The translations under genes were made by a program, and so were the position numbers. From Mycobacterium sp. UM_WGJ (GTDB taxonomy: Bacteria; Actinomycetota; Actinomycetes; Mycobacteriales; Mycobacteriaceae), in contig NZ_AUWR01000054.1 in the NCBI RefSeq assembly GCF_000455125.1, positions 1 through 64,000 on the forward strand: a stretch of 64,000 nucleotides of DNA, in the 5' to 3' direction. The notes under the pieces are model-generated. The model saw only the letters and a program-made list of their open reading frames with translations, was not told where the DNA came from and did no database searches. Position 1 is the first letter of the stretch. The number at the start of each line of letters is the position of its first letter. This document shows, one piece after another, positions 7,427 to 25,626 of the stretch.

Positions 7427-7432
7427 TCCGGT

Positions 7433-7484
7433 GGTTCAGCGAGCCTCGACGCAGGAGAGGCGAAGCTGGGACCACCGCATAAAC
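7433..7484 (+). repeat. Copy of interspersed 57-bp-type repeat
   Basis: The segment starting GGTTCAGCGAG and continuing through CTCGACGCAGGAGAGGCGAA and GCTGGGACC to CATAAAC matches, with few differences, the repeat unit found twice in tandem in front of hisF (reverse strand there). It sits in the gap between the cyclase stop (7426) and the esterase start (7548), and nothing else in the gap is recognisable. It is too short for an insertion sequence and has no coding potential of its own. A dispersed small repeat family is the likely explanation. Confidence 0.8.
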
Positions 7485-23556: not shown

Positions 23557-23913
23557 TCAATCTGCGGGACCGAGTAACACGTCCGCGTCAAAACAGCTGT
23601 GATCACCGGTATGGCAGGCACCACCGGTTTGATCGACGGTCAGCAGCAACGTGTCACCGTCGCAGTCCAGTCGCACCGCATGCACGTACTGGGTGTGGCC
23701 TGACGTCGCGCCCTTGATCCACTGCTCATTGCGGGAACGCGAAAAATACGTCGCCTCACGGGTCGCCAGGGTGCGGGCCAACGCCTCGTCGTCCATCCAG
23801 GCGACCATCAGGACGTCGCCGCTGCCGCGCTCTTGCACCACTGCTGCGATCAGCCCGTCGGGGTTGCGCTTGAGTCGCGCCGCGATCGCCGGATCCAGGG
23901 ACATCGGACTCAT
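23557..23913 (-). CDS. hisI: Phosphoribosyl-AMP cyclohydrolase
   Basis: Hydrolyses phosphoribosyl-AMP in histidine synthesis. The 118-residue single-domain enzyme (no fused HisE) has [33 protein letters not shown], and the metal-binding set DCDGDTLLL and [12 protein letters not shown]. The ATG overlaps the hisF stop as ATGA, and this start gives the length of Rv1606. It is the last gene of the leftward his operon. Confidence 0.95.
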
Positions 23914-24695
23914 CGCACCGTGATCCCCTCTGCCGCCATTGCGGCCTTGACCTGGCCGATGGTGAGTTCCCGGAAATGAAAGACGCTGGCGGCCAGGACC
24001 GCATCGGCACCAGCACCCACCGCCGGGGCGAAATGCTCTGCCGCACCGGCTCCCCCGCTGGCGATCACCGGTACGTTCACCGCGGCCCGAACCGCGCGCA
24101 GCATCGACAGATCGAATCCGGCTTTGGTTCCGTCGGCATCCATCGAGTTCAGCAGGATCTCCCCCACGCCGAGCTCCACACCGCGAATCGCCCACTCGAC
24201 CGCGTCGATACCGGTGCCCTGCCGGCCACCGTGGGTGGTGACCTCCCATCCGGAAGCGGTGGGCGGCGAACCGGCCGGGACGGTACGGGCGTCGACCGAC
24301 AACACGATGCACTGGGAACCGAACTGGCGGGACAGCTCCGCCAACAGTTCCGGGCGCGCGATCGCGGCGGTGTTCACCGATACCTTGTCCGCGCCGGCGC
24401 GCAGCAACACGTCCACGTCGGCGACCGTGCGTACTCCGCCGCCGACGGTCAGTGGGATGAACACCTGATCGGCGGTGCGTGCGACGACCTCGAGCATGGT
24501 CGCCCGGCCCGACGACGACGCCGTCACATCGAGGAAGGTCAGCTCGTCGGCTCCCTCGGCGTCATAGGCCGCGGCCAGCTCGACCGGGTCGCCGGCATCG
24601 CGCAGGTTGGCGAAATTGACGCCCTTGACGACGCGGCCGCCGTCGACGTCCAGACACGGAATGACCCGTACCGCTACATCACTGTGCCTATGCAT
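23910..24695 (-). CDS. hisF: Imidazole glycerol phosphate synthase cyclase subunit HisF
   Basis: With HisH makes imidazole glycerol phosphate and AICAR. The barrel starts [21 protein letters not shown], with the first catalytic aspartate in CLDVD and the second in NSMDADGTK. From ATG 24695 the product is 261 residues. The open frame continues in frame through two copies of a 57-base repeat to another ATG at 24809 (a start [19 protein letters not shown]), one base after the impA stop (TGAGATG). That upstream ATG is well placed for translational coupling and would add 38 residues. Which start is used is open; other mycobacterial HisF proteins have a short unrelated N-terminal segment. Confidence 0.92.
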
Positions 24696-24809
24696 CGGTC
24701 CCAGCTTCGCCTCTCCTGCGTCGAGCCTCGCTGAACCGCTGTGCTTATGCATCGGTCCCAGCTTCGCCTCTCCTGCGTCGAGCCTCGCTGAACCGCTGGG
24801 CTTATCCAT
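24682..24809 (-). repeat. 57-bp tandem repeat at the hisF 5' end
   Basis: Two full units, 24682-24738 and 24739-24795, differ at one base (24688 versus 24745); a third partial unit, 24796-24809, keeps 12 of 14 bases. On the coding strand each unit contains GGTTCAGCGAGGCTCGACG, CAGGAGAGGCGAAGCTGGG and ACCGATGCATA. As 57 is divisible by three, the repeat is open in the hisF frame and reads [20 protein letters not shown] further copy without tandem structure is at 7433-7484. Confidence 0.9.
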
Positions 24810-24810
24810 C

Positions 24811-25626
24811 TCAGTAGTCCCCCGGTGCGCCGACTCGCCTGAGGATCTCGAGGATCTGATCGTGTACCCCGGGCGCGGCGACCAGTGCCGAATCCGAGCG
24901 GGCCGTCCACGCTGCGCCGGCCAGGTCGGTGACGATGCCGCCGGCCGCCCGCACCATGGCCACACCGGCAGCGTGGTCCCAGATGTGGTCGCCGAAACTG
25001 ATCGCCCCGCCGAGGGTCCCGTCGGCGACATAGGCCAAGTCGATTCCGGTGGCGCCGTGCATCCGGGTCCGCGAGGTCACCCGGGTCAGGCCTTCGAGCA
25101 CCGCAAGTCGGTAGCGGCCGGGGAACCGGCCGCGCCACTCGACGTTGAAGGTGCCGATGCCGACCAACGAGTCGGCCAAGTCAACGGTTTTCAGTGGCGG
25201 CTGCGCCACCCCGTTGCGAATCAGCGGGCCACCGGCGACCGCGGTGTAGCGCTGGTCGGCGAAGGGCAGCCAGGTCAGCCCCGCGACCGGCTCACCGTCG
25301 CGCAGCAGCCCCAGCAGGACCGCCGACATCGGCGATCCGGCGGCGTAGTTGAACGTCCCGTCGATGGGATCGAGCACCCACACCAGCGGCGAATCGATCG
25401 GGGGCCCACCGAACTCCTCGCCGTGCACCCCGATTCCGGTATCGGCCACCAGCGCTTCGGTGATCTGCCGTTCCAAGGCCAGGTCGACCTCGGTGGCGAA
25501 GTCGTTGGCGCCCTTGCGGACCGCAGAGTCGGCCCGGTGGCCGGCGAGGAAAGGCTCGGCGGCGACATCGAGGATCCGCGACGCCGCTGCGACCAGCGCG
25601 CCCAGATCCGCGGTGTCCAGCGCCAT
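24811..25626 (-). CDS. impA: Inositol monophosphatase family protein ImpA
   Basis: Member of the lithium-sensitive, magnesium-dependent phosphatase family. The 271-residue protein has both signature motifs: [15 protein letters not shown] (metal ligands) and [19 protein letters not shown]. In mycobacteria this gene (Rv1604) sits in the his operon; family members act on inositol phosphates or on histidinol phosphate, and the substrate cannot be settled from sequence. It is 6 bases after hisA and one base before the potential upstream start of hisF. Confidence 0.92.

What the first reader, a model, noticed from the sequence alone, without database searches (positions are those of the whole stretch)
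24682..24809. A 57-bp tandem repeat reads in frame into hisF
Two nearly identical 57-base units plus a 14-base partial unit separate the impA stop from the conserved HisF start. The length is a multiple of three and the repeat is open in the hisF frame, giving [19 protein letters not shown] twice. The outermost ATG (24809) is one base after the impA stop (TGAGATG), ideal for coupling. So either HisF has a 38-residue repeat-encoded extension, or the repeat moved the start away from its coupling partner and supplies a new ATG (ATGCAT) in each unit. A mobile short repeat that donates start codons inside an operon would be unusual.
Basis: partly seen in the sequence, partly recalled or inferred. 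Interest (0 to 1): 0.7.

Follow-up and report, generated by a model that had tools for sequence, protein, structure and literature searches.

The report
Palindromic repeats inserted in-frame into genes
The doubled 57-letter repeat at the start of the histidine gene hisF is one copy of a family of about a hundred hairpin-shaped DNA repeats that this bacterium carries between genes and also, without breaking the reading frame, inside a number of genes, including one for cell-wall synthesis.

Summary
The repeat is real: 24682-24810 (- strand) holds two 57-nt units plus a partial one, open in the hisF frame. It is not private to hisF. A covariance model finds 104 copies of its ~47-nt hairpin in this genome, another one in the window (7430-7476), and 47 in Mycolicibacter sp. 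MYC123. The stem covaries. By my reading 24 of 72 loci examined lie in frame within ORFs. Orthologs of five genes (hisF, murD, an acetoacetate decarboxylase, a GNAT, a DUF255 protein) show empty and filled sites, with about 57 nt per unit. At hisF the insert lies after the native start; 11 of 24 genomes, this one included, carry 1, 2 or 6 units, in frame with the ATG that follows the impA stop. AlphaFold leaves residues 1-42 disordered and the barrel intact. So the extension is favoured and the start was not moved; but the last unit's ATG sits at native start distance, so internal starts remain possible. It lives like Rickettsia palindromic elements, is unlike a recalled MIRU motif, and no RAYT transposase was found. 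Mobiliser unknown.

The parts
24682..24810 (-). tandem array: two 57-nt units plus partial unit, in frame with hisF
   Evidence: TRF; sequence
24741..24797 (-). unit 1 (57 nt; hairpin core 24751-24797)
   Evidence: covariance model R1, 71.8 bits
24684..24740 (-). unit 2 (57 nt; hairpin core 24694-24740)
   Evidence: covariance model R1, 71.8 bits
24807..24809 (-). outer ATG, one base after the impA stop: favoured start of HisF, in the position of the start of repeat-free relatives
24750..24752 (-). ATG inside unit 1
   Evidence: sequence
24693..24695 (-). ATG inside unit 2, at native start distance from the HisF core; possible internal start
23910..24809 (-). hisF read from the outer ATG (299 aa); HisF family match at residues 45-299
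   Evidence: TIGR00735 369.6 bits, cut-off 294.55; AlphaFold
24811..25626 (-). upstream inositol-monophosphatase/HisN-like gene (impA of the finding)
   Evidence: NCBIfam matches, all below their cut-offs
7430..7476 (+). second copy of the hairpin in the window, intergenic by eye, just after a stop codon
   Evidence: R1, 72.2 bits; sequence; frames (L228)

Best explanation
The array is a local tandem expansion of a ~57-bp palindromic interspersed element. Shown: the family is dispersed, its hairpin covaries, and it is present or absent at orthologous sites in five genes; in register it reads GGCGGTTCAG(...)ACCGCCGCATGAAYCC and, in those genes, stands after a C or CC, often before a GGC-like sequence. 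Because 57 is a multiple of three and the consensus has no stop in four of its six frames, a copy that lands in a gene can be read through as a 19-residue hydrophilic insert. Inferred: the element spread by insertion through an unknown enzyme or recombination route; at hisF it landed just after the start codon; slippage or unequal recombination then gave 1, 2 or 6 copies; HisF is made mainly from the outer ATG with a disordered N-terminal tail that leaves the barrel intact. Most likely it brings HisF no benefit: it is tolerated selfish DNA whose hairpin, not its peptide, is kept.
For: Dispersal: 47 BLAST matches in the own genome, 104 model matches, 47 in named Mycolicibacter sp. MYC123 and 0 in Mycobacterium attenuatum, matches in 33 of 396 genus genomes, own included, some of them short and weak. 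Hairpin: 94.4% of 538 cells paired, 5 pairs with changes on both sides, 0 of 500 shuffles reach the covariation score, slid versions pair at 23.7-51.8%. Filled and empty sites, own genome included: hisF 11 filled, 1 remnant, 12 empty of 24; GNAT 4 filled, 18 empty, 1 not found of 23; DUF255 3 filled, 20 without of 23; MurD 6 filled, 4 in-frame scars, 10 empty, 2 of other length, 1 not found of 23; acetoacetate decarboxylase 3 filled, 19 empty, 1 not found of 23. Four pairs written out each differ by 57 nt. Pfam or NCBIfam matches run across the insert in 11 genes and come in two stretches at it in 2 more. Outer start. Disordered tail, confident barrel.
Against: No mobiliser known: the RAYT-type Y1 transposase family PF01797 has no match in the own genome, and other transposases were not searched. 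No sign of protein-level selection on the hisF array: 13 distinct variants in 28 units, 5 synonymous and 8 not. The 57-nt period is only weakly enriched in genes: 9 of 9 genic loci against 18 of 27 others, Fisher p = 0.076. Two filled hisF (G022, G226) carry one extra codon besides the units. No expression, ribosome or peptide data. On the hisF-region tree the filled/empty state changes only 2, 4 and 3 times, so part of the pattern may be loss or transfer rather than fresh insertion.
Confidence: 0.8

Rival explanations
1. MIRU-like leader: translation of HisF starts at the last ATG (24695) and the array acts as a leader that hands ribosomes to it, as proposed for mycobacterial interspersed repetitive units that insert at start codons.
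For: The ATG is invariant in 28 of 28 hisF units and the last one restores the native N-terminal length, while the usual codon there in copies elsewhere is CCG (by eye). A review says MIRUs insert at start codons with the MIRU ORF coupled to the gene (PMC12548453, passage).
Against: No stop lies between the outer ATG and HisF in any of the 11 filled genomes, so a ribosome starting there reads into HisF. G078 lacks the inner ATG. Four other genes take the same insert inside the coding sequence, where no start is needed.
Confidence: 0.22
2. The element is a MIRU proper.
For: Mycobacterial, 57 nt, tandem, dispersed; some copies sit right after a start codon at an operon junction (hisF; L112; L227).
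Against: No similarity above shuffles to a MIRU-like 53-bp unit found with a motif recalled from memory (score 18; 96 of 500 shuffles reach it), and that motif is distributed differently (175 of 396 genus genomes, one match in the own genome).
Confidence: 0.07
3. The repeat is a locally arisen minisatellite in hisF without mobility.
For: Unit number in hisF differs between species, as in ordinary minisatellites.
Against: 104 dispersed copies, empty sites in five genes, covarying hairpin.
Confidence: 0.01
4. The genic inserts are useful: the element supplies flexible linkers or a regulatory hairpin that hosts keep.
For: The forward frame GGSARLDxGEAKLGPP, a hydrophilic linker-like peptide, is the one used in 16 of my 24 genic loci; covariation shows that the hairpin is kept.
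Against: Relatives do without the insert in each of the five genes compared; the peptide shows no sign of purifying selection at hisF.
Confidence: 0.1

Closest known systems
Rickettsia palindromic elements (RPE)
   Same: Dispersed palindromic elements, nearly half of them in frame within unrelated genes, adding peptide to the product (PMC10969869, passage).
   Different: RPEs are ~150 bp and from Rickettsia; this one is 57 nt, in mycobacteria, tandemly amplified at some sites, and read in at least four of its frames over the genic loci (two on each strand; one of them at a single start-proximal copy). Sequence kinship not tested.
Cod-2 repeat of Corynebacterium diphtheriae
   Different: Reported as 32 nt, 43 copies, genic; here 47-57 nt, about 100 copies, two thirds of the examined loci outside genes by my reading. 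Sequences not compared.
MIRU (mycobacterial interspersed repetitive unit)
   Same: Short, tandem, dispersed in mycobacterial genomes; some copies at start codons.
   Different: Unlike the recalled MIRU-like motif; at hisF the frame is open through the repeat, and most genic copies lie away from start codons.
REP / BIME sequences
   Same: Palindromic, high copy number, mostly outside genes.
   Different: No RAYT-type transposase (PF01797) here; about a third of the examined loci are inside ORFs.
PARCEL (palindromic amphipathic repeat coding element)
   Same: A palindromic coding repeat, by title and start of abstract (PMC2996958, search listings).
   Different: Presented there as an intragenic tandem repeat of diverse microbes; paper not read, sequence not compared; the short name is recalled.

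Membership tests
MIRU | Sequence of the MIRU unit | tested here: inconclusive
   No similarity above shuffles (96 of 500) to a 53-bp unit found with a motif recalled from memory; that this motif is the published MIRU was not verified.
MIRU | Own short ORF coupled to the following gene rather than fused with it | tested here: not met
   At hisF the frame runs through without stop in 11 of 11 filled genomes.
Rickettsia palindromic elements | Palindromic and dispersed | tested here: met
Rickettsia palindromic elements | In-frame insertion in unrelated genes, with empty orthologs | tested here: met
Rickettsia palindromic elements | Size near 150 bp | tested here: not met
   57 nt per unit.
Rickettsia palindromic elements | Sequence homology to RPE families | not tested
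   No RPE sequences fetched.
REP with RAYT | Palindromic, high copy, mostly extragenic | tested here: met
REP with RAYT | Y1 (RAYT-type) transposase in the genome | tested here: not met
   PF01797: 0 matches in the own genome; it rings in 5 of 14 control genomes including E. coli.

The most novel reading that the evidence does not exclude
Mycolicibacter and neighbouring mycobacteria carry a mobile 57-bp palindromic element fitted to life inside genes: codon-multiple length, stop-free in four of six frames, entering GC-rich CC|GGC-like sites even in MurD, and moved by a still unknown, non-RAYT mechanism, so that dozens of host proteins differ between sister species by 19-residue blocks.
Probability: 0.4. 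Interest if true: 0.78.

Novelty: new variant of a known kind. Interest (0 to 1): 0.63.

Why it matters
In-frame invasion of genes by short palindromes is known best from Rickettsia. Here it appears in mycobacteria with filled and empty orthologs, in-frame scars and copy-number series, including MurD, a peptidoglycan enzyme held to be essential (general knowledge). That makes it testable what such inserts do to enzymes, how they enter, and whether selfish DNA lengthens host proteins. It also warns annotators: start sites and odd insertions in these proteins can be repeat-derived, and draft assemblies may break at the repeats.

Tried and rejected
MIRU identity: tested with a recalled motif; no similarity above shuffles; not verified against the published unit. 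RAYT mobilisation: PF01797 absent; other transposase families not searched. Rfam on 24400-25100: two matches far below their gathering scores, neither on the repeat. Protein-level selection on the hisF array: none visible (5 synonymous, 8 not). Frame enrichment of unit length in genes: a trend only (p = 0.076). A 15-bp target duplication that copied the hisF start codon was considered, because the inner ATGCATAAGCACAGC resembles the empty-site ATGCAGCAGCACAGC of G377; set aside because the same 57-nt length is found at the other four genes, so that stretch is better taken as the element's own tail with CCG changed to ATG. Insertions that break a gene's frame were not counted, so the share of in-frame landings among all genic landings is unknown.

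Literature: PubMed Central searches listed no paper that I recognised as describing this element (listings only; one search showed 10 of 13); the library holds open-licence papers only. Seen as passages: PMC12548453 (also outline and abstract), PMC2267715, PMC10969869, PMC4213456, PMC2884548, PMC10117815. PMC2996958 only in listings. The 1997 and 2000 MIRU papers of Supply and colleagues were not seen.

Full report
WHAT IS THERE. Tandem Repeats Finder gives 24682-24810, period 57, 2.3 copies, score 237, far above the other five arrays of the window. On the - strand TGA (impA stop) - G - ATG opens a frame that reads MDKPS, two [16 protein letters not shown](K/R)HS blocks, then [13 protein letters not shown] of HisF. 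HisF meets its family model (TIGR00735, 369.6 bits against a cut-off of 294.55, residues 45-299).

NOT A HISF PECULIARITY. The repeat used as query matches 47 places of the own genome (4.47 Mb, 116 contigs; 40 of 93 first-look candidates were scored). Alignment of one unit from each of 38 loci (A1) gives the consensus GGCGGTTCAGCGAGGCTCGACGnAGGAGAGGCGAAGCTGGGACCGCC. RNAalifold predicts one hairpin, with 3 of 13 pairs changed on both sides. With the structure written as 15 pairs, 94.4% of 538 cells pair, five pairs show changes on both sides, and 0 of 500 shuffles reach the covariation score (4 of 500 reach the number of further pair types); sliding the partners drops pairing to 23.7-51.8%. The pair 15-31 is not paired in 18 of 36 distinct rows. 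The sequences are related, so the shuffle control is not a probability, but the slid controls agree. A covariance model from A1 finds 104 copies at E <= 0.01 in the own genome (150 of 6967 candidates scored), including the two hisF units and one at window 7430-7476, where the stem reads GGTGGTTC...GGGACCACC, a paired change. The same model finds 47 in the named genome Mycolicibacter sp. MYC123 and none in Mycobacterium attenuatum or in a 2.0-Mb MAG. By BLAST, 33 of 396 genus genomes, own included, have a match; about ten of these are short or weak. G351 of that call shares match positions with MYC123, so the carriers include Mycolicibacter; that the window's own species belongs there is inference.

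HISF ACROSS RELATIVES. HisF was taken from 27 of the 32 other genomes with matches (all 27 gave it). With the own genome that makes 28; analyses 24 (G117, G175, G382 and G387, outside the clade and without repeat, were dropped). Filled: 11 (one unit G022, G372; two G000, G016, G069, G073, G174, G181, G226; six G101, G130). Remnant: G078. Empty: 12. The script accepted only an ATG close behind a TGA and in frame with HisF; it found one in 23 of 24 (in G309 the start overlaps the stop, TGATG, and was missed). G022 and G226 have one codon more than whole units explain. In G377 and G086 the empty site reads TGACATGCAGCAGCACAGC followed by GATGTG or GACGTC; in G101, sister of G086, six units stand between the AGCAC and the GAC codon. 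So the insert is 3' of the native start. The 28 units show 13 distinct variants, 5 synonymous, 8 in the last 13 nt, no stop and no indel. AlphaFold on the 299-residue form (36 sequences) gives block means of 30-38 for residues 1-40 and a confident barrel from about residue 47, with one weak loop at 97-100 (mean 81.8, pTM 0.79). From general knowledge of HisF-HisH, the N-terminus lies on the face where ammonia enters; the tail seems tolerated there.

COPIES INSIDE OTHER GENES. For 40 loci and 32 further loci I compared coding scores on both sides and read the frames. I assign 24 of 72 to in-frame positions within ORFs: L001 (hisF), L002, L004, L012, L102, L103, L106, L110, L112, L114, L116, L118, L121, L122 and L226, L227, L229, L231, L233, L234, L235, L240, L243, L250. 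This is my reading, partly by eye; two loci at contig ends (L113, L236) could not be judged, and hisF, L004, L112, L114 and L227 lie at or near N-termini, where the start is uncertain. Family models run across the insert in eleven: acetoacetate decarboxylase L121, short-chain dehydrogenases L118 and L243, AMP-binding L103, GNAT L116, GT87 L002, Mur ligase middle domain of MurD L229, SRAP L231, polyketide cyclase L234, mannosyltransferase MptA L235, arabinose-binding domain L240. In two, carbon-nitrogen hydrolase L012 and KshA L233, the match comes in two stretches and the listed one ends at the insert (one search was given 10 of the first 14, without L106, L110, L112, L114). No family was found for L102 and L250. 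In L004, L122, L226 and L227 the domain lies beside the insert. The other loci look intergenic by eye, many right after a stop codon.

FILLED AND EMPTY SITES (own genome included, 23 genomes each). GNAT: 4 filled with 1, 2, 2 and 4 units, 18 empty, 1 not found. DUF255: 3 filled, 20 without, one of these 3 residues longer. MurD: 6 filled; 4 with in-frame scars that keep a tail like CCGCATGAATCC; 10 empty; 2 of other length; 1 not found. Acetoacetate decarboxylase: 3 filled, 19 empty, 1 not found; the copy in G292 differs in sequence from that in G000 but sits at the same place, which means a preferred site or an old, mostly lost insertion. Filled minus empty is 57 nt in each of the four pairs written out. 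In a common register the unit GGCGGTTCAG...CCGCCGCATGAAYCC stands after C or CC, often before GGC. On a hisF-region tree (9 of 21 inner branches well supported) the filled/empty state changes at least 2 (hisF, remnant counted as filled), 4 (GNAT) and 3 (DUF255) times; G362, where the GNAT site was not found, was counted as empty. Five further matches in other genomes were read: in-frame copies in a flavin-monooxygenase-like ORF (G174), an NAD(P)HX-dehydratase-like ORF (G362) and a UvrD-like ORF (G359); the G117 copy is at the N-terminal edge of a dehydrogenase-like ORF; the G309 copy is intergenic (these gene names are recalled from motifs, no family search was run).

WHY IT CAN LIVE IN GENES. 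The consensus unit is 57 nt and free of stops in four of six frames. Tandem periods, measured on the first 40 loci and 15 loci of G022 and G016, were 57 in 10 of 10 genic cases; elsewhere 55-58, with 24 of 39 divisible by three; per locus 9 of 9 against 18 of 27, p = 0.076. The trend fits selection for frame but does not prove it.

START CODON. For the outer ATG: conserved junction, frame kept through every array, loss of the inner ATG in G078. For an inner start: the ATG is present in all 28 hisF units while the usual codon elsewhere is CCG, and the last ATG gives a HisF of native length. I put about 0.75 on the outer start being the main one; both may be used.

WHAT IT IS LIKE. Brown and Wade describe MIRUs as mobile and inserting at start codons (PMC12548453, passage). 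A MIRU-like 53-bp array found with a recalled motif sits at the start codon of a gene beginning MTRVLVIDDEP (L168), but its unit is not similar to ours beyond chance. The way of life seen here, in-frame insertion in unrelated genes, is that of Rickettsia palindromic elements (PMC10969869) and of the Cod-2 repeat of C. diphtheriae (PMC2267715). No RAYT-type transposase was found, so the means of movement is open.

VERDICT. The real finding is wider: a genic, frame-keeping palindromic repeat family in mycobacteria, of which my ten literature searches listed no description.

Noticed in passing
window 7430-7476 (+): A second copy of the element, intergenic just after a stop codon (the gene before it looks like an adenylate cyclase by eye, not searched), with a paired change in the stem.
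   Followed up: partly
L168 (G235), about 1488-1650: A MIRU-like 53-bp triple array with GATGACCCG repeated at the start codon of a gene beginning MTRVLVIDDEP; the recalled motif behind it occurs in 175 of 396 genus genomes.
   Followed up: partly
own genome contig ends: C1, C12, C28, C78: Copies lie at or within about 45 bases of contig ends, so the draft assembly probably breaks at this repeat and array lengths may be collapsed.
   Followed up: no
L229 and orthologs L256-L277 (murD): Four genomes keep only a short in-frame scar of the element, a footprint of imprecise loss.
   Followed up: yes
L283 (G292) versus L121 (G000): Two different copies of the element at the identical site of an acetoacetate decarboxylase gene in distant clade members: a hotspot or an old insertion.
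   Followed up: partly
L249 (own genome C4:6787-6934): Two copies with a longer loop (69 nt) spaced 79 nt apart; 69-nt matches also occur in MYC123. Perhaps a sub-family.
   Followed up: no
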